A stretch of DNA of 64,000 nt from positions 101,655 through 165,654 of the forward strand of contig CAXKVV010002152.1 of assembly GCA_964058805.1 (NCBI GenBank), written 5' to 3'. Source of the DNA: Schoenoplectus triqueter. Taxonomy: Eukaryota; Streptophyta; Magnoliopsida; Poales; Cyperaceae. The first letter of the stretch is position 1, and the number at the start of each line of letters is the position of its first letter. Shown here piece by piece: positions 1-45,556 of this stretch. The notes below the pieces were generated by a model. That model searched no databases and had not been told where the DNA came from. It saw nothing but the letters and a program-made list of their open reading frames with translations. The translations under genes and the position numbers were made by a program.

Positions 1-1
1 A

Positions 2-11200: not shown

Positions 11201-11231
11201 GCACAACTGATCAGTTAAAACCCAAACTGAC

Positions 11232-12423: not shown

Positions 12424-12664
12424 TGGGCCTTAAATTTATTGAATACACATCTCAATTGAATCCAACGGCCCAAGAGCATCTAAACATTTTAACTGAAATC
12501 TGCACTAATCTCAACATGATCCAACGGGTAGTATTAGATGCTGTATTTGATTGTGGCCCAGAGTAAGAGCCGGCCCAATTCAGAAAAAGTAAAAGGGAAA
12601 ATAAACTGGGCCCAATTCGTATTAAAATAAGAAGATTAAAACTTGGCCCAGTCAATTAAGCCCA
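12424..12664. promoter_or_regulatory. Cluster of GGCCCA/TGGGCC motifs
   Basis: GGCCCA or its complement occurs at least six times within about 240 bp (for example 12555, 12572, 12608, 12645), far above the surrounding AT-rich DNA. In plants this is the core of site II elements bound by TCP factors and is common in promoters. No downstream gene is visible, so function is uncertain. Confidence 0.35.
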
Positions 12665-14050: not shown

Positions 14051-14059
14051 ACATTTAGA

Positions 14060-14600: not shown

Positions 14601-14639
14601 AACAAGTAATTCATGACCATTTGAGCTAGCAAGACTGAA

Positions 14640-15245: not shown

Positions 15246-15453
15246 TGAAATTAGACGACCACTTGACCATCTTTTAACTATACTATTTGCTTCTCTCTTT
15301 CAAAGATCCAGAGGTGCCTCGAGGTTAGTAGCCCAGGGTAATTAACGGTGGGGGCTTGCGCCCACCGGAATCTACAAGAACTCACAATCACTAAAAACCC
15401 CCTGAATGTGCATCCAAATATCTCTAAACGGCAGAATCGGCCGACACCCAGCA

Positions 15454-15682
15454 GATGCACGCTCGGGAGGGATCTCCGTGTCCTTCTTCCGCAACCCATC
15501 GCCCAGCGGCGGTGCGGAGCGCGCGAAAAAGGGTCGCACAGGATCTGGCACGCCCAGTGGGACTATCAAAATAAACTCAGGGAATATAAGATTTGGATGC
15601 ACGCTCGGGAGGGATCTCCGTGTCCTTCTTCCGCATCCCATCGCCCAGCGGCGGTGCGGAGCGCGCGAAAAAGGGTTGCACA
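15454..15682 (+). repeat. Duplicated 87-bp LTR terminus flanking a PBS-like leader
   Basis: Two 87-bp copies (15454-15540 and 15596-15682) share GATGCACGCTCGGGAGGGAT through GCGCGCGAAAAAGGGT and both end GCACA; they differ at a few bases (GCAACCC/GCATCCC, GTCGCACA/GTTGCACA). The first is followed by a PBS-like motif and a short leader, the second directly by satellite. The simplest reading is LTR end, primer site, about 30 bp of internal sequence, then a second LTR end after a large deletion. Confidence 0.75.
15546..15563 (+). promoter_or_regulatory. Primer-binding-site-like motif
   Basis: TGGCACGCCCAGTGGGAC begins five bases after the CACA of an LTR-like terminus. A TGG start (complement of a tRNA CCA end) just inside the 5' LTR is how plant gypsy elements prime reverse transcription, and GC-rich sites of this shape are seen in Tat-clade elements. 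I have not assigned the tRNA. Confidence 0.65.
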
Positions 15683-18600
15683 GAACGTTCAACGATACTA
15701 ATTTTGCGTAAAAATTAAGTTAGATGCATTAAAAAGCTGTTGAAAGAAGTTGTTTGATTTTTTTATTTTTGGCTGAATAAATACTCAAAATATTGTGAAA
15801 ATTAATAAATTTACTCCTAATTATGCCAATTGTAAGATTGTCAAATTAACACTTCGATATTAATATCGTACGAGACTAATTTTTCGTAAAACATAAGTAA
15901 GATACATTACAAACAACTGTTTAACCAAGCTCTTTAAGATTTAAAACATTCATTGTCCATTACTACATATAATTTCATGAAAATTAATATAATTACTCCT
16001 AATTATACCTATTAGGAGAATATCCAATTAAAACTTCGATATGAATATTCTACGACACTAATTTTGCACAAAACATAAGTAAGATGCATTAAAAATAGCT
16101 GTTTAAACATGTTGATTGAGATTTTAAAATATTTTATCCGCATAACTGTATATAATTTCAGACAAATTCATATAATTACTCCTACTTATGCATATTATAA
16201 TACTTTCGAATTAAAACATCGATATGAATATTCTATGACGCTTATTTGTCATAAAACATAAGTAAGATGCATTAAAAAGTGCTATTTAAACAAGTTGTTT
16301 GACTTTTTTTAAATTTTTGGCCGCATAAATACACATAATTTCATGAAAATTAATGTGAATACTCTTAATTATGCCTATTGTAAGATTGTCCAATTAATAC
16401 TTCGATGTGAATATCCTACAACACTAATTTTTCATAAAACAGAAGTAAAATACATTAGAAACTACTGTTTAAACAAGTTATTTCAGTTTTTCAAAATTTT
16501 TGGCCGCATAACTACAAATAATTTCATGCAAATTAATATAATCACTTCTAATTATGTCTATTATAAGATTTTCTAATTAAAACTTCGATATGAACATTCT
16601 ATGATGCTAATTTTGCACAAAACATAAGGATAATGTGTTAAAAACTGCTGTTTAAACAAATTGTTTGAGATTTTCAAAATTTTTGGCCGCCTAGCTACTC
16701 AAAATTTCATGAAAATTAATATAATTACTCCTAATTATGCCTATTATGAGGTTGTCTAATTAACACTTCGAAATGAATTTCCTACGATACTAATTTTTCA
16801 TAAAACATAAGTAAGATATATTAGAAATTGGTGTTCAAACGAGTTATTTATGATTTTTAACATTTTTTTACCACATAACTACACATAATTTCATGAAAAT
16901 TAATATAATTACTTCTAACTATGCCTATTAGAAGATAATCCAATTAACACATCGATATGAACGTTCAACGACAGTAATTTTGCGTAAAAATTAAGTAAGA
17001 TGCATTAAAAGCTGTTTGAAGAAGTTGTTTGAATTTTTTTTCATTTTTGGCTGAATAAATACTGAAAATTTCATGAAAATTAATAAATTTACTTCTAATT
17101 ATGCCTATGGTAAGATTATCCATTTAACACTTCGATATTAATATCCTACGAGACTAATTTTTCATAAAACATAAGTAAGATACATTACAAACAACTGTTT
17201 AACCAACTTGTTTAATATTTAAAACATTCATTGTCCATTACTATATATAATTTCATCAAAATTAATATAATTACTCCTAATTAGACCTATTAGGAGAATA
17301 TCCAATTAAAACTTCGATATGAATATTCTACGACACTAATTTTGCACAAAACATAAGTAAGATGCATTAAAAATAGCTGTTTAAACATGTTGATTGAGCT
17401 TTTAAAATATTTTATCCGCATAACCGCATATAATTTCATGCAAATTAATATAATTACTCCTAATTATGCATATTATAATACTATCGAATTAAAACATCGA
17501 TATGAATATTTTATGACGCATATTTCGCACAAAACAAAGTAAGATGCATTAAAAACTTCTATTTAAATAAGTTATTTCACTTTTTTAAAATTTTTGGCCG
17601 CATAAATATACATAATTTCATGAAAATTAATGTGATTACCTTTAATTATGCCTATTGTAAGATTGACCAATTAATACTTAGATATGAATATCCTACGACA
17701 CTAATTTTCCATAAAACATAAGTAAAATACATTAGAAACTACTGTTTAAACAAGTTATTTCAGTTTTTCAAAATTTTTGGCCGCATAACTACATATAATT
17801 TCATACAAATTAATATAATCACTTCTAATTATGCCTATTATAAAATTTTCCAATTAAAACTTTGATATGAACATTCTACGATGCTAATTTTGCACAAAAC
17901 ATAAGCAATATGTGTTAAAAACTGCTGTTTAAACAAGTTGTTTGAGATTTTCAAAAATTTTGGCCGCCTAGCTACTCATAATTTCATGAAAATTAATATA
18001 ATTACTCCTAATTATGCCTATTATGAGGTTGTCCAATTAACACTTCGAAATGAATATCCTACAATACTAATCTTTCATAAAACTTAAGTAAGATGTATTA
18101 GAAACTGCTGTTCAAACGAGTTATTTAATATTTTTAACATTGTTTGCCTCATAACTACACATAATTTCGTGAAAATTAATACAATTACTCCTAACTATGC
18201 CTATTAGAAGATTATCCAATTAACACATCGATATGAACGTACAACGACACTAATTTTGCATAAAAAATTAAGTAAGATGCATTAAAAATCTGATGAAAGA
18301 AGTTGTTTGATTTTTATTTAATTTTTGGTTAATAAATACGCAAAATATCATGAAAATTAATAAATTTATTCCTAATTATGCCTATTGTAAGATTATCCAA
18401 TTAACACTTCGATATTAATATCCTACGAGACTAATTTTTCATAAAACATAAGTAAGATACATTACAAACTACTGTTTAACCAAGTTGTTTAAAATTTAAA
18501 ATATTCATTATCCATTACTACATATAATTTCGTAAAAATTAATATAATTACTCCTAATTATACCTATTTGGGGAATATCCAATTAAACCTTCGATATGAA

Positions 18601-20782
18601 TATTCTACGACAGTAATTTTGCACAAAACATAAGTAAGATGCATTAAAACAGCAGTTTAAACATGTTGATTGAGCTTTTAAAATATTTTATCCGCATAAG
18701 TGCATATAATTTCACACAAATTAATATAATTACTCCTAATTATGCATATTATAATACTATCGAATTAAAACATCGATATGAATATTCTATGATGCTTATT
18801 TTGCACAAAACATAAGTAAGATGCATTAAAAACTGCTATTTAAACAAGTTATTTGACTTTTTTAAAATTTTTGGCCGCATAAATACACATAATTTCATAA
18901 AAAATAATGTAATTACTCTTAAATATGCCTATTATAAGATTGTCTAATTAACACTTCGATATGAATATCCTACGACACTAATTTTTCATAAAACAGAAGT
19001 AAAATACATTAGAAACTACTGTTTAAACAAGTTATTTCAGATTTTTAAAATTTTTGGCCACATAACTACAAATAATTTCATGCAAATTAATATTATCACT
19101 CCTAATTATGTCTATTATAAGATTTTCCAATTAAAACTTCGATATTAACATTTTGTGATGCTAATTTTCCAAAAAAACATAAGGAATATATGTTAAAAAC
19201 TGCTGTTTAAACAAGTTGTTTGAGATTTTCAAAATTTTTTGTCCGCCTAGCTACTCATAATTTCGTGAAAATTCATATAATTACTCCTAATTATGCCTAT
19301 TATGAGGTTGTCCAATTAACACTTCGAAATGAATATCCTACGATACTAATTTTTCATAAAATATAAGTAAGATATATTAGAAACTGGTGTTCAAACGAGT
19401 TGTTTAAGATTTTTAACATTTTTTACCTCATAACTACACATAATTTCGTGAAAATTAATACAGTTACTCCTAACTATGCCTATTAGAAGATTATCCAATT
19501 AGCACGTCGATATGAACGTTCAACGACACTAATTTTGTGTAAAAATTAAGTAAGATGCATTAAAAAGCTGTTTAAAGAAGTTGTTTGATTTTTTTTTTAT
19601 TTTTGGCTGAATAAATACTCAAAATATCATGAAAATTAATAAATTTACTCCTAATTATGCCAATTGTAAGATTGTCAAATTAACACTTCGATATTAATAT
19701 CGTACGAGACTAATTTTTCGTAAAACATAAGTAAGATACATTACAAACAACTGTTTAACCAACTTGTTTAATATTTAAAACATTCATTGTCCATTAATAC
19801 ATATAATTTCATGAAAATTAAAATAATTACTCATAATTATACCTATTAGGAGATTATCCAATTAAAACATCGATATGAATATTCTACGACACTTATTTTG
19901 CACAAAACATAAGTAAGATGCATTAAAAACAGCAGTTTAAACATGTTGATTGAGATTTTAAAATATTTTTTCCGCATAACTGCATATTATTTCATGCAAA
20001 TAAATATAATTACTCCTAATTATGCATATTATAATACTATCGAATGAAAACATCGATATGAATATTCTATGATGCACAAAACATAAGTAAGATGCACTAA
20101 AAGCTGCTATTTAAAGAAGTTGTTTGACTTTTTAAAAAATTTTGGCCGCATTAATACACATAATTTTGTGAAAATTAATGTAATTACTCTTAATTATGCC
20201 TATTATAATATTGTCTAATTAACACTTCGATATGAATATCCTACGACACTAATTTTTCATAAAACATAAGTAAAATACATTAGAAACTACTGTTTAAACA
20301 AGTTATTTCAGTTTTTCAAATTTTTTGACCGCATAACTACAAATAATTTCGTGCAAATTAATATAATCACTCCTAATTATGCCTATTATAAGATTTTCTA
20401 ATTAAAACTTCGATATGAACATTCTATGATGCAAATTTTGCACAAAACATAAGGAATATGTGTTAAAAACTGCCGTTTAAACAAGTTGTTTGAGATTTTC
20501 AAAAATTTTGGCCGCCTCTCTACTCATAATTTCGTGAAAATTAATATAATTACTCATAATTATGCCTATTATGAGGTTGTCCAATTAACACTTCGAAATG
20601 AATATCCTACGATACTAATTTTTCATAAAACATAAGTAAGATATATTAGAAACTGCTGTTCAAACGAGTTGTTTAAGATTTTTAATATGTTTTACCTCAT
20701 AACTACACATAATTTCGTGAAAATTAATAAAATTACTCCTAACTATGCCTATTAGAAGATTATCCAATTAACACATCGATAT
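15683..20782. repeat. Satellite super-unit 1 (A-B-C-D, 5,100 bp)
   Basis: Blocks start at each GAACGT of the first monomer type: A 15683, B 16959, C 18235, D 19514 (1276, 1276, 1279 and 1269 bp). This copy, next to the retroelement, carries private variants relative to copies 2-4, for example ACTTCTAAC near 16912 where the others have ACTCCTAAC, and CAACTGTTTAACCAAGCTC near 15914 where they have CAGCTGTTTAACCAAGCTA. Confidence 0.95.
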
Positions 20783-23700
20783 GAACGTTCAACGATACTA
20801 ATTTTGCGTAAAAATTAAGTTAGATGCATTAAAAAGCTGTTGAAAGAAGTTGTTTGATTTTTTTATTTTTGGCTGAATAAATACTCAAAATATTGTGAAA
20901 ATTAATAAATTTACTCCTAATTATGCCAATTGTAAGATTGTCAAATTAACACTTCGATATTAATATCGTACGAGACTAATTTTTCGTAAAACATAAGTAA
21001 GATACATTACAAACAGCTGTTTAACCAAGCTATTTAAGATTTAAAACATTCATTGTCCATTACTACATATAATTTCATGAAAATTAATATAATTACTCCT
21101 AATTATACCTATTAGGAGAATATCCAATTAAAACTTCGATATGAATATTCTACGACACTAATTTTGCACAAAACATAAGTAAGATGCATTAAAAATAGCT
21201 GTTTAAACATGTTGATTGAGATTTTAAAATATTTTATCCGCATAACTGTATATAATTTCAGACAAATTCATATAATTACTCCTACTTATGCATATTATAA
21301 TACTTTCAAATTAAAACATCGATATGAATATTCTATGACGCTTATTTGTCATAAAACATAAGTAAGATGCATTAAAAAGTGCTATTTAAACAAGTTGTTT
21401 GACTTTTTTTAAATTTTTGGCCGCATAAATACACATAATTTCATGAAAATTAATGTGAATACTCTTAATTATGCCTATTGTAAGATTGTCCAATTAATAC
21501 TTCGATGTGAATATCCTACAACACTAATTTTTCATAAAACAGAAGTAAAATACATTAGAAACTACTGTTTAAACAAGTTATTTCAGTTTTTCAAAATTTT
21601 TGGCCGCATAACTACAAATAATTTCATGCAAATTAATACAATCACTTCTAATTATGTCTATTATAAGATTTTCTAATTAAAACTTCGATATGAACATTCT
21701 ATGATGCTAATTTTGCACAAAACATAAGGATAATGTGTTAAAAACTGCTGTTTAAACAAATTGTTTGAGATTTTCAAAATTTTTGGCCGCCTAGCTACTC
21801 AAAATTTCGTGAAAATTAATATAATTACTCCTAATTATGCCTATTATGAGGTTGTCTAATTAACACTTCGAAATGAATTTCCTACGATACTAATTTTTCA
21901 TAAAACATAAGTAAGATATATTAGAAATTGGTGTTCAAACGAGTTATTTATGATTTTTAACATTTTTTTACCACATAACTACACATAATTTCATGAAAAT
22001 TAATATAATTACTCCTAACTATGCCTATTAGAAGATAATCCAATTAACACATCGATATGAACGTTCAACGACAGTAATTTTGCGTAAAAATTAAGTAAGA
22101 TGCATTAAAAGCTGTTTGAAGAAGTTGTTTGAATTTTTTTTCATTTTTGGCTGAATAAATACTGAAAATTTCATGAAAATTAATAAATTTACTTCTAATT
22201 ATGCCAATGGTAAGATTATCCATTTAACACTTCGATATTAATATCCTACGAGACTAATTTTTCATAAAACATAAGTAAGATACATTACAAACAGCTGTTT
22301 AACCAACTTGTTTAATATTTAAAACATTCATTGTCCATTACTATATATAATTTCATCAAAATTAATATAATTACTCCTAATTATACCTATTAGGAGAATA
22401 TCCAATTAAAACTTCGATATGAATATTCTACGACACTAATTTTGCACAAAACATAAGTAAGATGCATTAAAAATAGCTGTTTAAACATGTTGATTGAGCT
22501 TTTAAAATATTTTATCCGCATAACCGCATATAATTTCATGCAAATTAATATAATTACTCCTAATTATGCATATTATAATACTATCGAATTAAAACATCGA
22601 TATGAATATTTTATGACGCATATTTCGCACAAAACAAAGTAAGATGCATTAAAAACTTCTATTTAAATAAGTTATTTCACTTTTTTAAAATTTTTGGCCG
22701 CATAAATATACATAATTTCATGAAAATTAATGTGATTACCTTTAATTATGCCTATTGTAAGATTGACCAATTAATACTTAGATATGAATATCCTACGACA
22801 CTAATTTTCCATAAAACATAAGTAAAATACATTAGAAACTACTGTTTAAACAAGTTATTTCAGTTTTTCAAAATTTTTGGCCGCATAACTACATATAATT
22901 TCATACAAATTAATATAATCACTTCTAATTATGCCTATTATAAAATTTTCCAATTAAAACTTTGATATGAACATTATACGATGCTAATTTTGCACAAAAC
23001 ATAAGCAATATGTGTTAAAAACTGCTGTTTAAACAAGTTGTTTGAGATTTTCAAAAATTTTGGCCGCCTAGCTACTCATAATTTCATGAAAATTAATATA
23101 ATTACTCCTAATTATGCCTATTATGAGGTTGTCCAATTAACACTTCGAAATGAATATCCTACAATACTAATCTTTCATAAAACTTAAGTAAGATGTATTA
23201 GAAACTGCTGTTCAAACGAGTTATTTAATATTTTTAACATTGTTTGCCTCATAACTACACATAATTTCGTGAAAATTAATACAATTACTCCTAACTATGC
23301 CTATTAGAAGATTATCCAATTAACACATCGATATGAACGTACAACGACACTAATTTTGCATAAAAAATTAAGTAAGATGCATTAAAAATCTGATGAAAGA
23401 AGTTGTTTGATTTTTATTTAATTTTTGGTTAATAAATACGCAAAATATCATGAAAATTAATAAATTTATTCCTAATTATGCCTATTGTAAGATTGTCCAA
23501 TTAACACTTCGATATTAATATCCTACGAGACTAATTTTTCATAAAACATAAGTAAGATACATTACAAACTACTGTTTAACCAAGTTGTTTAAAATTTAAA
23601 ATATTCATTATCCATTACTACATATAATTTCGTAAAAATTAATATAATTACTCCTAATTATACCTATTTGGGGAATATCCAATTAAACCTTCGATATGAA

Positions 23701-25882
23701 TATTCTACGACAGTAATTTTGCACAAAACATAAGTAAGATGCATTAAAACAGCAGTTTAAACATGTTGATTGAGCTTTTAAAATATTTTATCCGCATAAG
23801 TGCATATAATTTCACACAAATTAATATAATTACTCCTAATTATGCATATTATAATACTATCGAATTAAAACATCGATATGAATATTCTATGATGCTTATT
23901 TTGCACAAAACATAAGTAAGATGCATTAAAAACTGCTATTTAAACAAGTTATTTGACTTTTTTAAAATTTTTGGCCGCATAAATACACATAATTTCATAA
24001 AAAATAATGTAATTACTCTTAAATATGCCTATTATAAGATTGTCTAATTAACACTTCGATATGAATATCCTACGACACTAATTTTTCATAAAACAGAAGT
24101 AAAATACATTAGAAACTACTGTTTAAACAAGTTATTTCAGATTTTTAAAATTTTTGGCCACATAACTACAAATAATTTCATGCAAATTAATATTATCACT
24201 CCTAATTATGTCTATTATAAGATTTTCCAATTAAAACTTCGATATTAACATTTTGTGATGCTAATTTTCCAAAAAAACATAAGGAATATATGTTAAAAAC
24301 TGCTGTTTAAACAAGTTGTTTGAGATTTTCAAAATTTTTTGTCCGCCTAGCTACTCATAATTTCGTGAAAATTCATATAATTACTCCTAATTATGCCTAT
24401 TATGAGGTTGTCCAATTAACACTTCGAAATGAATATCCTACGATACTAATTTTTCATAAAATATAAGTAAGATATATTAGAAACTGGTGTTCAAACGAGT
24501 TGTTTAAGATTTTTAACATTTTTTACCTCATAACTACACATAATTTCGTGAAAATTAATACAGTTACTCCTAACTATGCCTATTAGAAGATTATCCAATT
24601 AGCACGTCGATATGAACGTTCAACGACACTAATTTTGTGTAAAAATTAAGTAAGATGCATTAAAAAGCTGTTTAAAGAAGTTGTTTGATTTTTTTTTTAT
24701 TTTTGGCTGAATAAATACTCAAAATATCATGAAAATTAATAAATTTACTCCTAATTATGCCAATTGTAAGATTGTCAAATTAACACTTCGATATTAATAT
24801 CGTACGAGACTAATTTTTCGTAAAACATAAGTAAGATACATTACAAACAACTGTTTAACCAACTTGTTTAATATTTAAAACATTCATTGTCCATTAATAC
24901 ATATAATTTCATGAAAATTAAAATAATTACTCATAATTATACCTATTAGGAGATTATCCAATTAAAACATCGATATGAATATTCTACGACACTTATTTTG
25001 CACAAAACATAAGTAAGATGCATTAAAAACAGCAGTTTAAACATGTTGATTGAGATTTTAAAATATTTTTTCCGCATAACTGCATATTATTTCATGCAAA
25101 TAAATATAATTACTCCTAATTATGCATATTATAATACTATCGAATGAAAACATCGATATGAATATTCTATGATGCACAAAACATAAGTAAGATGCACTAA
25201 AAGCTGCTATTTAAAGAAGTTGTTTGACTTTTTAAAAAATTTTGGCCGCATTAATACACATAATTTTGTGAAAATTAATGTAATTACTCTTAATTATGCC
25301 TATTATAATATTGTCTAATTAACACTTCGATATGAATATCCTACGACACTAATTTTTCATAAAACATAAGTAAAATACATTAGAAACTACTGTTTAAACA
25401 AGTTATTTCAGTTTTTCAAATTTTTTGACCGCATAACTACAAATAATTTCGTGCAAATTAATATAATCACTCCTAATTATGCCTATTATAAGATTTTCTA
25501 ATTAAAACTTCGATATGAACATTCTATGATGCAAATTTTGCACAAAACATAAGGAATATGTGTTAAAAACTGCCGTTTAAACAAGTTGTTTGAGATTTTC
25601 AAAAATTTTGGCCGCCTCTCTACTCATAATTTCGTGAAAATTAATATAATTACTCATAATTATGCCTATTATGAGGTTGTCCAATTAACACTTCGAAATG
25701 AATATCCTACGATACTAATTTTTCATAAAACATAAGTAAGATATATTAGAAACTGCTGTTCAAACGAGTTGTTTAAGATTTTTAATATGTTTTACCTCAT
25801 AACTACACATAATTTCGTGAAAATTAATAAAATTACTCCTAACTATGCCTATTAGAAGATTATCCAATTAACACATCGATAT
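20783..25882. repeat. Satellite super-unit 2 (5,100 bp)
   Basis: This copy is exactly in register with super-unit 1 at +5100. Line-by-line reading shows only scattered single-base differences over kilobases, so the copies were homogenised or amplified recently. Confidence 0.95.
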
Positions 25883-28800
25883 GAACGTTCAACGATACTA
25901 ATTTTGCGTAAAAATTAAGTTAGATGCATTAAAAAGCTGTTGAAAGAAGTTGTTTGATTTTTTTATTTTTGGCTGAATAAATACTCAAAATATTGTGAAA
26001 ATTAATAAATTTACTCCTAATTATGCCAATTGTAAGATTGTCAAATTAACACTTCGATATTAATATCGTACGAGACTAATTTTTCGTAAAACATAAGTAA
26101 GATACATTACAAACAGCTGTTTAACCAAGCTATTTAAGATTTAAAACATTCATTGTCCATTACTACATATAATTTCATGAAAATTAATATAATTACTCCT
26201 AATTATACCTATTAGGAGAATATCCAATTAAAACTTCGATATGAATATTCTACGACACTAATTTTGCACAAAACATAAGTAAGATGCATTAAAAATAGCT
26301 GTTTAAACATGTTGATTGAGATTTTAAAATATTTTATCCGCATAACTGTATATAATTTCAGACAAATTCATATAATTACTCCTACTTATGCATATTATAA
26401 TACTTTCAAATTAAAACATCGATATGAATATTCTATGACGCTTATTTGTCATAAAACATAAGTAAGATGCATTAAAAAGTGCTATTTAAACAAGTTGTTT
26501 GACTTTTTTTAAATTTTTGGCCGCATAAATACACATAATTTCATGAAAATTAATGTGAATACTCTTAATTATGCCTATTGTAAGATTGTCCAATTAATAC
26601 TTCGATGTGAATATCCTACAACACTAATTTTTCATAAAACAGAAGTAAAATACATTAGAAACTACTGTTTAAACAAGTTATTTCAGTTTTTCAAAATTTT
26701 TGGCCGCATAACTACAAATAATTTCATGCAAATTAATATAATCACTTCTAATTATGTCTATTATAAGATTTTCTAATTAAAACTTCGATATGAACATTCT
26801 ATGATGCTAATTTTGCACAAAACATAAGGATAATGTGTTAAAAACTGCTGTTTAAACAAATTGTTTGAGATTTTCAAAATTTTTGGCCGCCTAGCTACTC
26901 AAAATTTCGTGAAAATTAATATAATTACTCCTAATTATGCCTATTATGAGGTTGTCTAATTAACACTTCGAAATGAATTTCCTACGATACTAATTTTTCA
27001 TAAAACATAAGTAAGATATATTAGAAATTGGTGTTCAAACGAGTTATTTATGATTTTTAACATTTTTTTACCACATAACTACACATAATTTCATGAAAAT
27101 TAATATAATTACTCCTAACTATGCCTATTAGAAGATAATCCAATTAACACATCGATATGAACGTTCAACGACAGTAATTTTGCGTAAAAATTAAGTAAGA
27201 TGCATTAAAAGCTGTTTGAAGAAGTTGTTTGAATTTTTTTTCATTTTTGGCTGAATAAATACTGAAAATTTCATGAAAATTAATAAATTTACTTCTAATT
27301 ATGCCAATGGTAAGATTATCCATTTAACACTTCGATATTAATATCCTACGAGACTAATTTTTCATAAAACATAAGTAAGATACATTACAAACAGCTGTTT
27401 AACCAACTTGTTTAATATTTAAAACATTCATTGTCCATTACTATATATAATTTCATCAAAATTAATATAATTACTCCTAATTATACCTATTAGGAGAATA
27501 TCCAATTAAAACTTCGATATGAATATTCTACGACACTAATTTTGCACAAAACATAAGTAAGATGCATTAAAAATAGCTGTTTAAACATGTTGATTGAGCT
27601 TTTAAAATATTTTATCCGCATAACCGCATATAATTTCATGCAAATTAATATAATTACTCCTAATTATGTATATTATAATACTATCGAATTAAAACATCGA
27701 TATGAATATCTTATGACGCATATTTCGCACAAAACAAAGTAAGATGCATTAAAAACTTCTATTTAAATAAGTTATTTCACTTTTTTAAAATTTTTGGCCG
27801 CATAAATATACATAATTTCATGAAAATTAATGTGATTACCTTTAATTATGCCTATTGTAAGATTGACCAATTAATACTTAGATATGAATATCCTACGACA
27901 CTAATTTTCCATAAAACATAAGTAAAATACATTAGAAACTACTGTTTAAACAAGTTATTTCAGTTTTTCAAAATTTTTGGCCTCATAACTACATATAATT
28001 TCATACAAATTAATATAATCACTTCTAATTATGCCTATTATAAAATTTTCCAATTAAAACTTTGATATGAACATTCTACGATGCTAATTTTGCACAAAAC
28101 ATAAGCAATATGTGTTAAAAACTGCTGTTTAAACAAGTTGTTTGAGATTTTCAAAAATTTTGGCCGCCTAGCTACTCATAATTTCATGAAAATTAATATA
28201 ATTACTCCTAATTATGCCTATTATGAGGTTGTCCAATTAACACTTCGAAATGAATATCCTACAATACTAATCTTTCATAAAACTTAAGTAAGATGTATTA
28301 GAAACTGCTGTTCAAACGAGTTATTTAATATTTTTAACATTGTTTGCCTCATAACTACACATAATTTCGTGAAAATTAATACAATTACTCCTAACTATGC
28401 CTATTAGAAGATTATCCAATTAACACATCGATATGAACGTACAACGACACTAATTTTGCATAAAAAATTAAGTAAGATGCATTAAAAATCTGATGAAAGA
28501 AGTTTTGATTTTTATTTAATTTTTGGTTAATAAATACGCAAAATATCATGAAAATTAATAAATTTATTCCTAATTATGCCTATTGTAAGATTGTCCAATT
28601 AACACTTCGATATTAATATCCTACGAGACTAATTTTTCATAAAACATAAGTAAGATACATTACAAACTACTGTTTAACCAAGTTGTTTAAAATTTAAAAT
28701 ATTCATTATCCATTACTACATATAATTTCGTAAAAATTAATATAATTACTCCTAATTATACCTATTTGGGGAATATCCAATTAAACCTTCGATATGAATA

Positions 28801-33900: not shown

Positions 33901-36900
33901 ATTCTACGACAGTAATTTTGCACAAAACATAAGTAAGATGCATTAAAACAGCAGTTTAAACATGTTGATTGAGCTTTTAAAATATTTTATCCGCATAAGT
34001 GCATATAATTTCACACAAATTAATATAATTACTCCTAATTATGCATATTATAATACTATCGAATTAAAACATCGATATGAATATTCTATGATGCTTATTT
34101 TGCATAAAACATAAGTAAGATGCATTAAAAACTGCTATTTAAACAAGTTATTTGACTTTTTTAAAATTTTTGGCCGCATAAATACACATAATTTCATAAA
34201 AATTAATGTAATTACTCTTAAATATGCCTATTATAAGATTGTCTAATTAACACTTCGATATGAATATCCTACGACACTAATTTTTCATAAAACAGAAGTA
34301 AAATACATTAGAAACTACTGTTTAAACAAGTTATTTCAGATTTTTAAAATTTTTGGCCACATAACTACAAATAATTTCATGAAAATTAATATTATCACTC
34401 CTAATTATGTCTATTATAAGATTTTCCAATTAAAACTTCGATATTAACATTTTGTGATGCTAATTTTCCAAAAAAACATAAGGAATATATGTTAAAAACT
34501 GCTGTTTAAACAAGTTGTTTGAGATTTTCAAAATTTTTTGTCCGCCTAGCTACTCATAATTTTGTGAAAATTCATATAATTACTCCTAATTATGCCTATT
34601 ATGAGGTTGTCCAATTAACACTTCGAAATGAATATCCTACGATACTAATTTTTCATAAAACATAAGTAAGATATATTAGAAATTGGTGTTCAAACGAGTT
34701 ATTTATGATTTTTAACATTTTTTTACCACATAACTACACATAATTTCATGAAAATTAATATAATTACTCCAAACTATGCCTATTAGAAGATAATCCAATT
34801 AACACATCGATATGAACGTTCAACGACAGTAATTTTGCGTAAAAATTAAGTAAGATGCATTAAAAGCTGTTTGAAGAAGTTGTTTGAATTTGTTTTTCAT
34901 TTTTGGCTGAATAAATACTGAAAATTTCATGAAAATTAATAAATTTACTTCTAATTATGCCAATGGTAAGATTATCCATTTAACACTTCGATATTAATAT
35001 CCTACGAGACTAATTTTTCATAAAACATAAGTAAGATACATTACAAACAGCTGTTTAACCAACTTGTTTAATATTTAAAACATTCATTGTCCATTACTAT
35101 ATATAATTTCATCAAAATTAATATAATTACTCCTAATTATACCTATTAGGAGAATATCCAATTAAAACTTCGATATGAATATTCTACGACACTAATTTTG
35201 CACAAAACATAAGTAAGATGCATTAAAAATAGCTGTTTAAACATGTTGATTGAGCTTTTAAAATATTTTATCCGCATAACTTCATATAATTTCATGCAAA
35301 TTAATATAATTACTCCTAATTATGCATATTATAATACTATCAAATTAAAACATCGATATGAATATTTTATGACGCATATTTCGCACAAAACAAAGTAAGA
35401 TGCATTAAAAACTTCTATTTAAATAAGTTATTTCACTTTTTTAAAATTTTTGGCCGCATAAATATACATAATTTCATGAAAATTAATGTGATTACCTTTA
35501 ATTATGCCTATTGTAAGATTGACCAATTAATACTTAGATATGAATATCCTACGACACTAATTTTCCATAAAACATAAGTAAAATACATTAGAAACTACTG
35601 TTTAAACAAGTTATTTCAGTTTTTCAAAATTTTTGGCCGCATAACTACATATAATTTCATACAAATTAATATAATCACTTCTAATTATGCCTATTATAAA
35701 ATTTTCCAATTAAAACTTTGATATGAACATTCTACGATGCTAATTTTGCACAAAACATAAGCAATATGTGTTAAAAACTGCTGTTTAAACAAGTTGTTTG
35801 AGATTTTCAAAAATTTTTGCCGCCTAGCTACTCATAATTTCATGAAAATTAATATAATTACTCCTAATTATGCCTATTATGAGGTTGTCCAATTAACACT
35901 TCGAAATGAATATCCTACAATACTAATCTTTCATAAAACTTAAGTAAGATGTATTAGAAACTGTTGTTCAAACGAGTTATTTAATATTTTTAACATTGTT
36001 TGCCTCATAACTACACATAATTTCGTGAAAATTAATACAATTACTCCTAACTATGCCTATTAGAAGATTATCCAATTAACACATCGATATGAACGTTCAA
36101 CGACACTAATTTTGCATAAAAAATTAAGTAAGATGCATTAAAAATCTGATGAAAGAAGTTGTTTGATTTTTATTTAATTTTTGGTTAATAAATACGCAAA
36201 ATATCATGAAAATTAATAAATTTATTCCTAATTATGCCTATTGTAAGATTGTCCAATTAACACTTCGATATTAATATCCTACGAGACTAATTTTTCATAA
36301 AACATAAGTAAGATACATTACAAACTACTGTTTAACCAAGTTGTTTAAAATTTAAAATATTCATTATCCATTTCTACATATAATTTCGTAAAAATTAATA
36401 TAATTACTCCTAATTATACCTATTTGGGGAATATCCAATTAAACCTTCGATATGAATATTCTACGACAGTAATTTTGCACAAAACATAAGTAAGATGCAT
36501 TAAAACAGCAGTTTAAACATGTTGATTGAGCTTTTAAAATATTTTATCCGCATAAGTGCATATAATTTCACACAAATTAATATAATTACTCCTAATTATG
36601 CATATTATAATACTATCGAATTAAAACATCGATATGAATATTATATGATGCTTATTTTGCACAAAATAAAAGTAAGATGCATTAAAAACTGCTATTTAAA
36701 CAAGTTATTTGACTTTTTTTAAATTTTTGGCCGCATAAATACACATAATTTCATAAAAATTAATGTAATTACTCTTAAATATGCCTATTATAAGATTGTC
36801 TAATTAACACTTCGATATGAATATCCTACGACACTAATTTTTCATAAAACAGAAGTAAAATACATTAGAAACTACTGTTTAAACAAGTTATTTCAGATTT

Positions 36901-38639
36901 TTAAAATTTTTGGCCACATAACTACAAATAATTTCATGCAAATTAATATTATCACTCCTAATTATGTCTATTATAAGATTTTCCAATTAAAACTTCGATA
37001 TTAACATTTTGTGATGCTAATTTTCCAAAAAAACATAAGGAATATATGTTAAAAACTGCTGTTTAAACAAGTTGTTTGAGATTTTCAAAATTTTTTGTCC
37101 GCCTAGCTACTCATAATTTCGTGAAAATTCATATAATTACTCCTAATTATGCCTATTATGAGGTTGTCCAATTAACACTTCGAAATGAATATCCTACGAT
37201 ACTAATTTTTCATAAAATATAAGTAAGATATATTAGAAACTGGTGTTCAAACGAGTTATTTAAGATTTTTAACATTTTTTTACCTCATAACTACACATAA
37301 TTTCGTGAAAATTAATACAGTTACTCCTAACTATGCCTATTAGAAGATTATCCAATTAGCACGTCGATATGAACGTTCAACGACACTAATTTTGTGTAAA
37401 AATTAAGTAAGATGCATTAAAAAGCTGTTTAAAGAAGTTGTTTGATTTTTTTTTTATTTTTGGCTGAATAAATACTCAAAATATCATGAAAATTAATAAA
37501 TTTACTCCTAATTATGCCAATTGTAAGATTGTCAAATTAACACTTCGATATTAATATCGTACGAGACTAATTTTTCGTAAAACATAAGTAAGATACATTA
37601 CAAACAACTGTTTAACCAAGTTGTTTAATATTTAAAACATTCATTGTCCATTACTACATATAATTTCATGAAAATTAAAATAATTACTCATAATTATACC
37701 TATTAGGAGATTATCCAATTAAAACATCGATATGAATATTCTACGACACTTATTTTGCACAAAACATAAGTAAGATGCATTAAAAACAGCAGTTTAAACA
37801 TGTTGATTGAGATTTTAAAATATTTTTTCCGCATAACTGCATATTATTTCATGCAAATAAATATAATTACTCCTAATTATGCATATTATAATACTATCGA
37901 ATGAAAACATCGATATGAATATTCTATGATGCACAAAACATAAGTAAGATGCACTAAAAGCTGCTATTTAAAGAAGTTGTTTGACTTTTTAAAAAATTTT
38001 GGCCGCATTAATACACATAATTTTGTGAAAATTAATGTAATTACTCTTAATTATGCCTATTATAATATTGTCTAATTAACACTTCGATATGAATATCCTA
38101 CGACACTAATTTTTCATAAAACATAAGTAAAATACATTAGAAACTACTGTTTAAACAAGTTATTTCAGTTTTTCAAATTTTTTGACCGCATAACTACAAA
38201 TAATTTCGTGCAAATTAATATAATCACTCCTAATTATGCCTATTATAAGATTTTCTAATTAAAACTTCGATATGAACATTCTATGATGCAAATTTTGCAC
38301 AAAACATAAGGAATATGTGTTAAAAACTGCCGTTTAAACAAGTTGTTTGAGATTTTCAAAAATTTTGGCCGCCTCTCTACTCATAATTTCGTGAAAATTA
38401 ATATAATTACTCATAATTATGCCTATTATGAGGTTGTCCAATTAACACTTCGAAATGAATATCCTACGATACTAATTTTTCATAAAACATAAGTAAGATA
38501 TATTAGAAACTGCTGTTCAAACGAGTTGTTTAAGATTTTTAATATGTTTTACCTCATAACTACACATAATTTCGTGAAAATTAATAAAATTACTCCTAAC
38601 TATGCCTATTAGAAGATTATCCAATTAACACATCGATAT
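30982..38639. repeat. Expanded satellite super-unit 4 (A-B-C-B-C-D, 7,658 bp)
   Basis: Block starts are A 30982, B 32258, C 33534, B' 34814, C' 36091, D 37371. An extra B-C pair (14 monomers, about 2,557 bp) is present. The end of the first C switches to A-type sequence near 34655-34685 (CATAAAACATAAG, then AAATTGGTGTTC), where other C blocks have CATAAAATATAAG and AAACTGGTGTTC. This marks a junction from unequal exchange between in-phase monomers. Confidence 0.93.
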
Positions 38640-39914
38640 GAACGTTCAACGATACTAATTTTGCGTAAAAATTAAGTTAGATGCATTAAAAAGCTGTTGA
38701 AAGAAGTTGTTTGATTTTTTTATTTTTGGCTGAATAAATACTCAAAATATTGTGAAAATTAATAAATTTACTCCTAATTATGCCAATTGTAAGATTGTCA
38801 AATTAACACTTCGATATTAATATCGTACGAGACTAATTTTTCGTAAAACATAAGTAAGATACATTACAAACAGCTGTTTAACCAAGCTATTTAAGATTTA
38901 AAACATTCATTGTCCATTACTACATATAATTTCATGAAAATTAATATAATTACTCCTAATTATACCTATTAGGAGAATATCCAATTAAAACTTCGATATG
39001 AATATTCTACGACACTAATTTTGCACAAAACATAAGTAAGATGCATTAAAAATAGCTGTTTAAACATGTTGATTGAGATTTTAAAATATTTTATCCGCAT
39101 AACTGTATATAATTTCAGACAAATTCATATAATTACTCCTACTTATGCATATTATAATACTTTCGAATTAAAACATCGATATGAATATTCTATGACGCTT
39201 ATTTGTCATAAAACATAAGTAAGATGCATTAAAAAGTGCTATTTAAACAAGTTGTTTGACTTTTTTTAAATTTTTGGCCGCATAAATACACATAATTTCA
39301 TGAAAATTAATGTGAATACTCTTAATTATGCCTATTGTAAGATTGTCCAATTAATACTTCGATGTGAATATCCTACAACACTAATTTTTCATAAAACAGA
39401 AGTAAAATACATTAGAAACTACTGTTTAAACAAGTTATTTCAGTTTTTCAAAATTTTTGGCCGCATAACTACAAATAATTTCATGCAAATTAATATAATC
39501 ACTTCTAATTATGTCTATTATAAGATTTTTTAATTAAAACTTCGATATGAACATTCTATGATGCTAATTTTGCACAAAACATAAGGATAATGTGTTAAAA
39601 ACTGCTGTTTAAACAAGTTGTTTGAGATTTTCAAAACTTTTGGCCGCCTTGCTACTCATAATTTAGTGAAAATTAATATAATTACTCCTAATTATGCCTA
39701 TTATGAGGTTGTCCAATTAACACTTCGAAATGAATATCCCACAATACTAATTTTTAATAAAACTTAAGTAAGATATATTAGAAACTGCTGTTCAAACGAG
39801 TTGTTTAAGATTTTTAACATTTTTTGCCTCATAAATACACATAATTTCGTGAAAATTAATACAATTACTCCTAACTATGCCTATTAGAAGATCATCCAAT
39901 TAACACATCCATAT
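38640..39914. repeat. Transitional satellite block (A-type changing to E/F-type)
   Basis: It follows block A almost perfectly until about 39600, then changes to another variant set (CAAAACTTTTGGCCGCCTTG, ATAATTTAGTG), while staying in the seven-monomer phase. This is the boundary between two homogenisation domains. Confidence 0.85.
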
Positions 39915-42475
39915 GAACGTTCAACGATACTAATTTTGCGTAAAAATTAAATAAGATGCATTAAAAAGCTGTTGAAAGAAGTTGTTTGATTTTTTTTTAA
40001 TTTTTGGCTGAATAAATACTCAAAATATCGTGAAAATTAATAAATTTATTCCTAATTATGCCTATTGTATGATTGTCCAATTAATACTTCGATATTAATA
40101 TCTTACGAGAATAATTTTTCGTAAAACATAAGTAGGATACATTACAAACTGTTGTTCAACCAAGTTATTTAAGATTTAAAACATTCATTGTCCATTACTA
40201 CATATAATTTCGTGAAATTAATATAATTACTCCTAATTATACCTATTAGGAGAATATCCAATTAAAACTTCGATATGAATATTCTACGACACTAATTTTG
40301 CACAAAACATAACTAAGATGCATTAAAAATAGCTGTTTAAACATGTTGATTGAGCTTTTAAAATATTTTATCCGCATAACTGCATATAATTTCAGGCAAA
40401 TTAATATAATTACTCCTAATTATGCATATTATAATACTATAGAATTAAAACATCGATATTAATATTCTATGATGCTTATTTTTCATAAAACATATGTAAG
40501 ATGCATTAAAAACTGCTATTTAAACAAATTGTTTGACTTTTTTAAAATTTTTGGCCGCATAAATACACATAATTTCATGAAAATTAATGTGAAAACTCTT
40601 AATTATTCCTATTGTAAGATTGTCCAATTAATACTTCGATATGAATATCCTACGACACTAATTTTTCATAAAACATAAGTAAAATACATTAGAAACTACT
40701 GTTTAAACAAGTTATTTCAGTTTTTCAAAATATTTGGCCGCATAACTACAAATAATTTCGTGCAAATTAAAATAATCACTCCTAATTATGCCTATTATAA
40801 GATTTTCCAATTAAAACTTCGATATGAACATTCTATGATGCTAATTTTGCACAAAACATAAGGAATATGTGTTAAAAACTGCTGTTTAAACAAGTTGTTT
40901 GAGATTTTCAAAATTTTTGGCCGCCTAGCTACTCATAATTTCGTGAAAATTAATATAATTACTCCTAATTATGCCTATTATGAGGTTGTCCAATTAACAC
41001 TTCGAAATGAATACCCTACAATACTATTTTTTCATAAAACTTAAGTAAGATATATTAGAAACTGCTATTCAAACGAGTTGTTTAAGATTTTTAATATTTT
41101 TTGCCTCATAACTACACATAATTTCATGAAAATTAATACAATTACTCCTAACTTTGCCTATTAGAAGATTATCCAAATAAACACATCGATATGAATGTTC
41201 AACGACACTAATTTTGCGTAAAAATTAAGTAAGATGCATTAAAAAGCTGTTGAAAGAAGTTGTTTGATTTTTTTTTAATTTTTGGCTGAATAAATACTCA
41301 AAATATCGTGAAAATTAATAAATTTATTCCTAATTATGCCTATTGTAAGATTGTCCAATTAACACTTCGATATTAATATCCTACGAGACTAATTTTTCGT
41401 AAAAGATAAGTAGAATACATTATAAACTGCTGTTTAACCAAGCTATTTAAGATTTAAAACATTCATTGTCCATTACTACATATAATTTCGTGAAAATTAA
41501 TATAATTACTCCTAATTATACCTATTAAAAGAATATCCAAATAAAACTTCGATATGAATATTCTACGACACTGATTTTGCACAAAACATAAGTAAGATGC
41601 ATTAAAAATAGCTGTTTAAACATGTTGATTGAGCTTTTAAATTCTTTTATCCGCATAACTGCATATAATTTATATACAGGCAAATTAATATAATTACTCC
41701 TAATTATGCATATTATAATACTATCAAATTAAAACATCGATATGAATATTCTATGACGCTTATTTGTCATAAAACATAAGTAAGATGCATTAAAACTGCT
41801 ATTTAAACAAGTTGTTTGACTTTTTTAAAATTTTTGGCCGCATAAATACACATAATTTCGTGAAAATTAATGTGAATACTCTTATTTATGCCTATTGTAA
41901 GATTGTCCAATTAATACTTCGATATGAATATCCTACGACACTAATTTTTCATAAAACATAAGTAAAATACATTAGAAACTACTGTTTAAACAAGTTATTT
42001 CAGTTTTTCAAAAATTTTGGCCGCATAACTACAAATAATTTCGTGCAAATTAATATGATCACTCCTAATTATGCCTATTATAAGATTTGCCAATTAAAAC
42101 ATCGATATGAACATTCTATAATGCTAATTTTGCACAAAACATAAGGAATATGTGTTAAAAACTGCTGTTTAAACAAGTTGTTTGAGATTTTCAAAATTTT
42201 TGGCCGCCTAGCTACTCATAATTTCGTGCAAATTAATATAATTACTCCTAATTATGCCTATTATGAGGTTCTCCAATTAACACTTCGAAATGAATATCCT
42301 ACAATACTAATTTTTCATAAAACTTAAGTAAGATATATTAGAAACTGCTATTCAAACGAGTTGTTTAAGATTTTTAATATTTTTTTGCCTCATAACTACA
42401 CATAATTTCGTGAAAATTAATACAATTACTCCTAACTATACCTATTAGAAGATCATCCAATTAACACATCCATAT
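39915..42475. repeat. Satellite E-F double block, copy 1 (2,561 bp)
   Basis: Block E starts at 39915 (1278 bp) and F at 41193 (1283 bp). Diagnostic features are CATCCATATGAACG at the E start, ATGAATGTTCAACGAC at the F start, and a TATATACAGG insertion near 41672. The 14-monomer period replaces the 28-monomer period seen to the left. Confidence 0.93.
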
Positions 42476-45037
42476 GAACGTTCAACGATACTAATTTTGC
42501 GTAAAAATTAAATAAGATGCATTAAAAAGCTGTTGAAAGAAGTTGTTTGATTTTTTTTTAATTTTTGGCTGAATAAATACTCAAAATATCGTGAAAATTA
42601 ATAAATTTATTCCTAATTATGCCTATTGTATGATTGTCCAATTAATACTTCGATATTAATATCTTACGAGAATAATTTTTCATAAAAGATAAGTAGGATA
42701 CATTACAAACTGCTGTTCAACCAAGTTATTTAAGATTTAAAACATTCATTGTCCATTACTACATATAATTTCGTGAAATTAATATAATTACTCCTAATTA
42801 TACCTATTAGGAGAATATCCAATTAAAACTTCGATATGAATATTCTACGACACTAATTTTGCACAAAACATAACTAAGATGCATTAAAAATAGCTGTTTA
42901 AACATGTTGATTGAGCTTTTAAAATATTTTATCCGCATAACTGCATATAATTTCAGGCAAATTAATATAATTACTCCTAATTATGCATATTATAATACTA
43001 TAGAATTAAAACATCGATATTAATATTCTATGATGCTTATTTTTCATAAAACATATGTAAGATGCATTAAAAACTGCTATTTAAACAAGTTGTTTGACTT
43101 TTTTAAAATTTTTGGCCGCATAAATACACATAATTTCATGAAAATTAATGTGAAAACTCTTAATTATTCCTATTGTAAGATTGTCCAATTAATACTTCGA
43201 TATGAATATCCTACGACACTAATTTTTCATAAAACATAAGTAAAATACATTAGAAACTACTGTTTAAACAAGTTATTTCAGTTTTTCAAAATATTTGGCC
43301 GCATAACTACAAATAATTTCGTGAAAATTAAAATAATCACTCCTAATTATGCCTATTATAAGATTTTCCAATTAAAACTTCGATATGAACATTCTATGAT
43401 GCTAATTTTGCACAAAACATAAGGAATATGTGTTAAAAACTGCTGTTTAAACAAGTTGTTTGAGATTTTCAAAATTTTTGGCCGCCTAGCTACTCATAAT
43501 TTCGTGAAAATTAATATAATTACTCCTAATTATGCCTATTATGAGGTTGTCCAATTAACACTTCGAAATGAATACCCTACAATACTATTTTTTCATAAAA
43601 CTTAAGTAAGATATATTAGAAACTGCTATTCAAACGAGTTGTTTAAGATTTTTAATATTTTTTGCCTCATAACTACACATAATTTCATGAAAATTAATAC
43701 AATTACTCCTAACTTTGCCTATTAGAAGATTATCCAAATAAACACATCGATATGAATGTTCAACGACACTAATTTTGCGTAAAAATTAAGTAAGATGCAT
43801 TAAAAAGCTGTTGAAAGAAGTTGTTTGATTTTTTTTTAATTTTTGGCTGAATAAATACTCAAAATATCATGAAAATTAATAAATTTATTCCTAATTATGC
43901 CTATTGTAAGATTGTCCAATTAACACTTCGATATTAATATCCTACGAGACTAATTTTTCGTAAAAGATAAGTAGAATACATTATAAACTGCTGTTTAACC
44001 AAGCTATTTAAGATTTAAAACATTCATTGTCCATTACTACATATAATTTCGTGAAAATTAATATAATTACTCCTAATTATACCTATTAAAAGAATATCCA
44101 AATAAAACTTCGATATGAATATTCTACGACACTGATTTTGCACAAAACATAAGTAAGATGCATTAAAAATAGCTGTTTAAACATGTTGATTGAGCTTTTA
44201 AATTCTTTTATCCGCATAACTGCATATAATTTATATACAGGCAAATTAATATAATTACTCCTAATTATGCATATTATAATACTATCAAATTAAAACATCG
44301 ATATGAATATTCTATGACGCTTATTTGTCATAAAACATAAGTAAGATGCATTAAAACTGCTATTTAAACAAGTTGTTTGACTTTTTTAAAATTTTTGGCC
44401 GCATAAATACACATAATTTCGTGAAAATTAATGTGAATACTCTTATTTATGCCTATTGTAAGATTGTCCAATTAATACTTCGATATGAATATCCTACGAC
44501 ACTAATTTTTCATAAAACATAAGTAAAATACATTAGAAACTACTGTTTAAACAAGTTATTTCAGTTTTTCAAAATTTTTGGCCGCATAACTACAAATAAT
44601 TTCGTGCAAATTAATATGATCACTCCTAATTATGCCTATTATAAGATTTGCCAATTAAAACATCGATATGAACATTCTATAATGCTAATTTTGCACAAAA
44701 CATAAGGAATATGTGTTAAAAACTGCTGTTTAAACAAGTTGTTTGAGATTTTCAAAATTTTTGGCCGCCTAGCTACTCATAATTTCGTGCAAATTAATAT
44801 AATTACTCCTAATTATGCCTATTATGAGGTTGTCCAATTAACACTTCGAAATGAATATCCTACAATACTAATTTTTCATAAAACTTAAGTGAGATATATT
44901 AGAAACTGCTATTCAAACGAGTTGTTTAAGATTTTTAATATTTTTTTGCCTCATAACTACACATAATTTCGTAAAAATTAATATAATTACTCCTAACTAT
45001 GCCTATTAGAAGATTATCCAAATGAACACATCGATAT
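42476..45037. repeat. Satellite E-F double block, copy 2 (2,562 bp)
   Basis: It is near-identical to copy 1 at +2561, including the private TATATACAGG insertion near 44233. Block F' begins at 43754. The shared insertion shows the two copies duplicated as a 14-monomer unit. Confidence 0.93.
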
Positions 45038-45472
45038 GAACGTTCAACGACACTAATTTTGCGTAAAAATTAAGTAAGATGCATTAAAAAGCTGTTGAAA
45101 GAAGTTGTTTGATTTTTTTTTAATTTTTGGCTGAATAAATACTCAAAATATCATAAAAATTAATAAATTTATTCCTAATTATGCCTATTGTAAGATTGTC
45201 CAATTAACACTTCGATATTAATATCCTACGAGACTAATTTTAAATAAAAGATAAGTAGGATACATTACAAACTGCTGTTTAAGATGAATTAAAAAGCTGT
45301 TGAAAGAAGTTGTTTGATTTTTTTTAATTTTTGGCTGGATAAATACTCAAAATATCATGAAAATTAACACTTCAATATTAATATCCTACGAGACTAATTT
45401 TTCGTAAAAGATAAGTAGGATACATTACAAACTGCTATTTAACCAAGCTATTTAAGATTTAAAACATTCATC
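45038..45472. repeat. Scrambled right edge of the satellite
   Basis: After 45038 the seven-mer order breaks. Near 45282, CTGCTGTTTAA jumps back to GATGAATTAAAAAGCTG of an earlier monomer, and near 45360 a monomer is internally truncated. The last recognisable words are AAAACATTCATCG at about 45460-45472, then unique sequence starts. Degenerate edges are expected where unequal exchange cannot homogenise. Confidence 0.88.
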
Positions 45473-45556
45473 GTAAGCTGCAAAACCAAGAAAATCAAAG
45501 GTAACATTGGTACATCCACACCCTGATTCTCCAAGCTTAGGTTTGTCGGTAATACT
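45473..45556 (-). other. Unique remnant of the gene's 3' flank/3'UTR
   Basis: Only about 84 bp of unique sequence separate the stop codon from the satellite. No AATAAA on the minus strand lies in this interval. The nearest I see is inside the satellite at 45173-45168, so the transcript may use a satellite-derived polyadenylation signal. Confidence 0.7.

What the first reader, a model, noticed from the sequence alone, without database searches (positions are those of the whole stretch)
15683..45472. Three-level higher-order satellite: 182 bp x 7 x 4
Seven ordered monomer types make blocks of about 1,276 bp, and four block types make a 5,100-bp, 28-monomer super-unit repeated in exact register at 15683, 20783, 25883 and 30982. 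Nested higher-order structure this regular is well known for primate alpha satellite but unusual in plants. It implies successive rounds of amplification with larger units.
Basis: seen in the sequence. Interest (0 to 1): 0.9.

Follow-up and report, generated by a model that had tools for sequence, protein, structure and literature searches.

The report
Nested satellite repeat in a sedge
A tandem DNA repeat in a sedge-like plant is built in three nested layers (single units, blocks of 7, super-blocks of 28) whose top layer was found at this one spot only, while sampled arrays of the same repeat elsewhere have their own block sizes, so scattered repeat arrays in a plant can evolve much as human centromere DNA does.

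Summary
Window 15683 to ~45482 is a 183-bp satellite in strict 7-type order; four 7-blocks make a 5,100-bp, 28-monomer unit with starts exactly as quoted. Identity is ~79% between adjacent monomers, ~91-95% between 7-block types and 98.9-99.8% between five complete 28-mers. Corrections: three complete 28-mers lie in the window, the fourth carries a 14-monomer duplication, and the last ~5.7 kb keeps the 7-order but not the 28-order. Position 15683 is not the array start: it is the 3' LTR end of a retrotransposon complex inside the array, which continues 23.6 kb upstream with the same 28-mer. The whole array is ~53 kb, homogeneous in its core and decayed at both edges. A marker of the 28-mer has 8 hits in the 82-Mb assembly, all on this contig. 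22 of 24 sampled segments of this family (17 contigs) show a higher-order period, of various lengths; one group shares the same A-G monomers in order. Two flanking genes point to a sedge, a family known for holocentric chromosomes, so these may be dispersed centromere units: untested. New variant of a known kind.

The parts
15683..30981 (+). Three complete 28-monomer super-units (15683-20782, 20783-25882, 25883-30981), each four 7-blocks of about 1,276 bp
   Evidence: monomer decomposition, clustering and unit lengths
30982..39736 (+). Fourth super-unit with a 14-monomer duplication (positions 0-19, then 6-27), followed by positions 0-5 of a fifth
   Evidence: assignment to super-unit positions
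39737..45482 (+). Right-hand layer: 14-mer order VWXCDUK YWZCDUK twice, 7-phase kept but 28-order absent, then shortened and rearranged monomers; the end is read by eye
2..7249 (+). Open frame of a Ty3/gypsy retrotransposon (protease, RT, RNase H, second RNase H, integrase); Tat lineage suggested by domain order (recalled)
   Evidence: Pfam on four pieces
5923..15682 (+). Right copy of a 9.77-kb direct repeat (end of pol plus LTR); its LTR end GCACA abuts the satellite; the partner copy lies left of the window and is 99.86% identical
   Evidence: self-BLAST of adjoining stretches of contig C2065
48103..48969 (-). Flanking open frame, membrane protein of the At1g16860 kind; best named relatives are sedges
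56769..58819 (-). Flanking cinnamate 4-hydroxylase-like (CYP73) gene, exons as spliced by me, 5' end not included

Best explanation
This is one locus of a dispersed 183-bp satellite family in a sedge-like plant. Shown: three nested repeat tiers; a homogeneous core with decayed edges that keep the older 7-order; duplications and losses of whole monomers; a 28-mer marker found only at this locus; other arrays built from the same seven monomer types in other multiples. Inferred: an ancestral 7-mer was amplified at several loci, and each locus then re-amplified its own multiple by out-of-register exchange or replication-based copying (unequal crossing-over, gene conversion or break-induced replication); here the multiple became four 7-blocks. 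A Ty3/gypsy complex came to lie in the youngest layer, after the 28-mer had amplified. Inferred and about even odds: the arrays are, or recently were, centromere units, possibly of a repeat-based holocentromere.
For: Identity tiers and permutation controls; five complete 28-mers on both sides of the insertion 98.90-99.82% alike, and a divergence gradient from 26-37% at the far left to about 0% in the core to 3-6% at the right; whole-monomer jumps, nearly all keeping the 7-phase; same 28-mer upstream; 28-mer marker 8 of 8 hits on C2065; C44, C315, C136 and C2084 read in the same A-G alphabet as 7-, 14-, 12- and 4-mers; higher-order periods in 22 of 24 segments. For the centromere role: sedge host, three separate satellite stretches on the 1.0-Mb contig C22, one a bounded 20-kb array, similar in size to Tyba units, and WW dinucleotides strongest at 10.13 bp.
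Against: No reads, CENH3 data or karyotype were available; no genus was identified; spacing rests on one long contig, where only places suggested by exact hits were fetched. Sampled arrays were chosen from strong hits, so homogeneous arrays are over-represented, and two of 24 segments show no higher-order period. Some contigs could be haplotypes or pieces of one array (C2047 and C1337 carry the same 13-mer). The left junction of the retrotransposon complex is truncated within pol and about eight monomers are missing there, which also an assembly error could make. Centromere types other than holocentric are reported in some sedges.
Confidence: 0.7

Rival explanations
1. The structure is as described but the satellite is not centromeric: a dispersed heterochromatic or interstitial satellite whose arrays homogenise locally.
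For: Salicaceae arrays without CENH3 peaks also show higher-order repeats and homogenisation (passage); in Luzula many arrays of centromeric satellites lack CENH3 (passage). No functional data here.
Against: Nucleosome-sized monomer, strongest WW harmonic near 10.1 bp, a 20-kb bounded array, about 2% of the assembly by extrapolation. None of this is decisive.
Confidence: 0.4
2. The species has one centromere per chromosome and the many satellite contigs are fragments of a few large centromeres.
For: Several fetched contigs are short (C116 30.8 kb, C134 31.5 kb, C20 32.4 kb, C2047 17.9 kb) and their fetched 10 kb are satellite throughout. Other centromere types are reported in some sedges.
Against: C22 (1.009 Mb) holds three separate stretches; the window array lies 2.6 kb from a gene-like frame; sampled arrays differ in monomer types and periods.
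Confidence: 0.12
3. Assembly artefact: copies of a shorter array were multiplied or misjoined, making the regular register.
For: Near-identical units are hard to assemble; the left junction of the retrotransposon complex is odd; contig C60 shows a pattern repeated at 219 kb.
Against: Copies carry private substitutions, a two-monomer loss, a seven-monomer loss and a 14-monomer duplication; divergence changes gradually to both edges; other loci show different periods.
Confidence: 0.08
4. The satellite arose from tandem repeats of the neighbouring retrotransposon.
For: LTR ends of this family abut the satellite at several loci, and the element has short tandem repeats of its own. Such origins are reported elsewhere (PMC7004042, title and start of abstract only).
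Against: BLASTN of the satellite consensus against the 27.6-kb complex found nothing at E up to 1. LTR ends meet the satellite at different points of the monomer and on both strands, as insertions would.
Confidence: 0.03

Closest known systems
Primate alpha satellite higher-order repeats
   Same: Divergent monomers in ordered multimers, unit copies nearly identical, edges disordered, shared monomer classes with multimers private to a site (passages of PMC8997354)
   Different: Unrelated sequence; arrays here are tens of kilobases and several can lie on one contig; three regular tiers
Tyba of Rhynchospora (repeat-based holocentromere)
   Same: Sedge host, monomer of similar length (172 bp), dispersed arrays of about 20 kb (passages)
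   Different: No match to Tyba primers; CENH3 not tested here; the passages I saw do not mention higher-order repeats for Tyba
Higher-order repeats in plant centromeres (Arabidopsis, Populus, Brachypodium, Papaver)
   Same: Multimers that differ by chromosome (passages)
   Different: For Papaver and Arabidopsis a negative exponential length distribution is stated; how regular the others are I did not read
Satellites CR1 of Carex and Chio1/2 of Chionographis
   Same: Higher-order periods in a sedge (61, 93, 124, 248 bases) and in a holocentric plant (passages)
   Different: Units of 23-31 bp; no locus-private multimers described in the passages seen
Local-nested higher-order repeats of human centromeres (HiCAT)
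   Same: Repeats within repeats (passages)
   Different: There a sub-unit is amplified inside a unit; here whole 7-blocks diverged and were then amplified together as a group of four

Membership tests
Higher-order repeat satellite (alpha-satellite-like organisation) | Divergent monomers, nearly identical multi-monomer units | tested here: met
   about 79% against 98.9-99.8%
Higher-order repeat satellite (alpha-satellite-like organisation) | Unit private to a chromosome or locus | tested here: met
   28-mer marker, up to 3 mismatches: 8 hits, all C2065; chromosome assignment unknown
Higher-order repeat satellite (alpha-satellite-like organisation) | Homogeneous core, disordered edges | tested here: met
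Higher-order repeat satellite (alpha-satellite-like organisation) | Monomer classes shared between loci | tested here: met
   five contigs share the A-G alphabet
Tyba satellite | Sequence similarity to Tyba | tested here: not met
   forward primer 0 hits with up to 3 mismatches in the assembly; both primers match the window array no better than shuffled primers; full Tyba sequence not available
Repeat-based holocentromere | Many arrays of about 20 kb spread along chromosomes | tested here: inconclusive
   three stretches on the 1.0-Mb contig C22; no chromosome-scale map
Repeat-based holocentromere | CENH3 on the arrays, holocentric chromosomes | not testable with these tools
   needs ChIP-seq and cytology
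Tat lineage of Ty3/gypsy (inserted element) | RT, RNase H, second (archaeal-type) RNase H, integrase in this order | tested here: met
   Pfam RVT_1, RT_RNaseH, RVT_3, rve; that this order marks Tat is recalled; no phylogeny was made

The most novel reading that the evidence does not exclude
A holocentric sedge whose chromosomes carry many small centromere units, many of which have evolved their own, sometimes three-tiered, higher-order repeat from a few shared monomer lineages: alpha-satellite-style evolution run in parallel at many sites of one genome.
Probability: 0.4. Interest if true: 0.78.

Novelty: new variant of a known kind. Interest (0 to 1): 0.6.

Why it matters
How higher-order repeats start and spread is an open question, and megabase arrays are hard to read. 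Here one whole array of about 53 kb can be read with both edges, and further loci show different multiples (4, 7, 12, 14, 28) of the same seven monomers. That gives replicate histories of one process in one genome. If the arrays carry CENH3, it would also show that local homogenisation gives separate centromere units their own sequence identity even where a chromosome has many of them, which bears on models of centromere drive and homogenisation.

Tried and rejected
First species guess, Utricularia (from the 82-Mb assembly size), was dropped. Of 729 hits to a flanking open frame, 120 were listed; the best named are Carex littledalei (80%) and Rhynchospora tenuis (79%), the other named ones 50% or lower; three unnamed records from metagenomic or similar sources reach 86-99%. 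A CYP73-like gene spliced by me is 93% to Rhynchospora pubera and 94% to an unnamed JGI record, against 85% for Typha and Elaeis; a Hibiscus and a Cocos entry of unusual length rank high by score at 62-65% identity. Neither search names the genus.

A palindrome (TTTCATGAAA) was considered as a binding motif and dropped: exact in 41 of 163 window monomers and absent from some arrays (C134, C44, C2047, C1337).

Origin of the satellite from the retrotransposon: no similarity at E up to 1.

Preference of the LTR family for one zone of the monomer: of 11 LTR ends followed within 30 bp by CTAATTTT, 8 read as satellite by eye and 1 more (C514) is possible; two of the 8 (C461, C2062) have the same sequence and may be one insertion. 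A mid-monomer motif gave 1, but its exact motif misses real cases such as C44, so this stays a lead. An earlier count said 9 of 11; the figure here replaces it. The LTR family is widespread (795 end matches), so insertion in satellite need not be targeted. A reverse-strand test did not complete.

A 57-base exact consensus pattern found nothing, and a 1,276-base DNA query could not be scored.
Full report
What is in the window. TRF finds one 183-bp array at 15688-45282. Aligning the array to its consensus with wrap-around dynamic programming gave 165 pieces, of which 164 longer than 100 bp were kept. Average-linkage clustering at 15% divergence reads ABCDEFG over and over to monomer 162, with two odd terminal monomers; at 5% divergence the order is ABCDEFG HBCIJKL MNOPEQR ASOTUKR three times complete, then a fourth copy with a duplicated stretch, then a different order.

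More than chance. Mean identity at monomer lag 7 is 0.933, against 0.812 +/- 0.005 (maximum 0.826) in 1000 random orders. At lag 28 it is 0.9695, against 0.941 +/- 0.005 (maximum 0.960) when 23 whole 7-blocks are shuffled 1000 times. The third level is real beyond the second. In the 23 x 23 block matrix four block types are about 91-94% alike between types and 98.4% or more alike within a type, apart from transitional block 18 (97.7-98.0% to its type); the last four full blocks alternate between two further types, 99.2-99.6% alike within and 96% between.

Outside the window. The left edge, 15683, is where a retrotransposon LTR ends (GCACA) and satellite begins. The open frame at 2-7249 carries aspartic protease (weak), reverse transcriptase, RNase H, a second RNase H and integrase domains. 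A 9,765-bp direct repeat, 99.86% identical, starts inside this frame at 5923 and ends at 15683; its partner lies left of the window, and beyond that partner the satellite resumes. So the complex (27,565 bp) lies inside the array. Its left end is truncated within pol, no target-site duplication is seen, and about eight monomers of the 28-mer are missing at the join. The satellite continues to C2065:66208 with the same 28-mer in the same order: of 131 pieces 110 are at least 98% identical to a window monomer, and the six at the far left are poor, 63-79%. It ends next to a 58-bp GC-rich satellite. The whole array is therefore about 23.6 + 29.8 kb.

History written in the array. Against the super-unit consensus, monomers differ by 26-37% at the far left, then ~5%, then mostly 0-4%, then ~0% around the insertion and through the window's first units, and 2-7% in the right-hand layer. 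Five complete 28-mers (two left, three right of the insertion) are pairwise 98.90-99.82% identical. Breaks in order are whole-monomer jumps: one copy lost two monomers (11 to 14), one lost seven (10 to 18), one gained fourteen (19 to 6). Apart from the two-monomer loss and the poorest monomers at the far left, the jumps keep the 7-phase, at both edges too, which is direct evidence that the 7-order is older than the 28-order. This is the pattern expected of out-of-register exchange or replication-based copying with a growing unit, as in the models described in PMC8997354 (passages). The insertion lies in the youngest layer with the same 28-mer on both sides; I infer that it came after that amplification.

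Other loci. A 26-base core of the monomer has 9,705 matches (up to 3 mismatches, both strands) in the 82,091,230-bp assembly and none for the reversed control. In the window the same rule finds 145 hits for 164 monomers, so I extrapolate about 11,000 monomers, ~2 Mb, ~2.4%. I decomposed 24 segments from 17 contigs, taken from strong or first-listed hits and so biased to homogeneous arrays. Of these 22 show a higher-order period: C116 17 monomers (0.999), C134 14 (0.999), C136 12 (0.999), C354 20 (0.997), C1725 18 (0.997), C361 13 (0.995), C22 20 (0.994), C315 14 (0.992) with a 7-mer inside (0.886), C2047 and C1337 13 (0.999), C44 7 and 14 (0.977, 0.986), C2084 4, 8 and 12 (0.93-0.98) with one 11 (0.924), the two halves of C2065, and less cleanly C20, C15, C4 and C1199 (0.85-0.92). 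Two, both on C22, show none. A nested period is clear in C315 besides C2065.

Shared alphabet. Mean best-hit identities sort arrays into groups. C2065, C44, C315 and C136 share monomers at 92-95%; C2084 monomers find partners in them at 92-95%, while theirs find partners in C2084 segments at 87-93%, as C2084 mostly lacks types A-C. C22 and C354 share 20-mers at 97.6-97.7%; C2047 and C1337 carry the same 13-mer; other comparisons lie at about 76-90%. Read in the A-G alphabet, C44 is (ABCDEFG)n, C315 two 7-blocks with one altered monomer, C136 ABCDG+ABCDEFG, C2084 mainly DEFG with one stretch DEFGABCDEFG. In-order steps are 54/54, 46/53, 48/53 and 68/89 (five C2084 segments summed), against 12-31% in the other arrays except C15 (12/24). 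A 25-base marker of this group has 289 hits; the 100 listed fall on 11 contigs, many at ~1,270-bp spacing. A marker of the C2065 28-mer has 8 hits, all on C2065. So a 7-mer is shared among contigs and the 28-mer is private; that the contigs are separate loci and not haplotypes is not proven.

Host and setting. Two flanking genes have their best named matches in sedges (numbers under Tried and rejected), and telomere repeats are TTTAGGG. I conclude a sedge, genus unknown. Sedges are known for holocentric chromosomes, but a passage of PMC11583847 says that mono- and heterogeneous centromeres are reported in Scirpus and Bolboschoenus. On the 1.009-Mb contig C22 the satellite occurs in three separate places (about 53.0-54.7 kb, 376.3-396.2 kb, and from 994.5 kb), the middle one a 20-kb array bounded on both sides; only places suggested by exact hits were fetched, so there may be more. 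Tyba arrays of Rhynchospora breviuscula have a median of 17.4 kb and spacing of ~355 kb (figure legend in PMC10954556). The sequence is not Tyba as far as two primers tell. The strongest of 60 WW harmonics of the array is 10.13 bp, 6.5 times their mean, in keeping with rotational phasing of nucleosomes. The centromere role remains untested.

Literature. Searches on Tyba with higher-order repeats, holocentric with higher-order repeats, nested or multimeric plant repeats and sedge assemblies with satellites listed no paper whose title or abstract start reports locus-private nested higher-order repeats in a sedge. Related reports exist: higher-order periods of a 31-bp Carex satellite (PMC9526063, passages) and a higher-order repeat cluster in holocentric Chionographis (PMC10264360, passages). 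The library lacks most subscription papers; the main Rhynchospora genome paper (Hofstatter et al. 2022) I know only from citations, so I claim no priority. Of the papers named I saw search listings and the passages returned by 'find', never a whole text.

Verdict. It is the private third tier of one among many arrays, cut by a retrotransposon, in a sedge-like genome. Structure and amplification history are well supported; centromere function is a hypothesis.

Noticed in passing
L009 (C2065:1-10000), C2065:65254-66186, L028 (C22:50580-53006), L023 (C1725): A second, GC-rich 58-bp satellite; beside the 183-bp satellite at C2065 and C22, and its 174/232-bp periods also appear in the C1725 stretch.
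   Followed up: partly
window 1-15682, L010, L030; LTR ends at C2084 (L005), C15 (L025), C44 (L035): A Ty3/gypsy family whose LTR end directly abuts the 183-bp satellite at several loci and in both orientations; 795 LTR-end matches in the assembly.
   Followed up: partly
contig C60 of G000: LTR ends at 89054, 96917 and 136420 recur 218,953-218,960 bp further on (308007, 315870, 355380): a 219-kb duplication or an assembly error.
   Followed up: no
C22:53.0-54.7 kb and from 994.5 kb: Two satellite stretches without higher-order structure and with low identity between neighbours (lag-1 0.70 and 0.75), possibly dying arrays.
   Followed up: no
window 48103-48969: Open frame of 289 residues whose best sedge relatives are 450-460 residues long: one exon or a truncated gene.
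   Followed up: no
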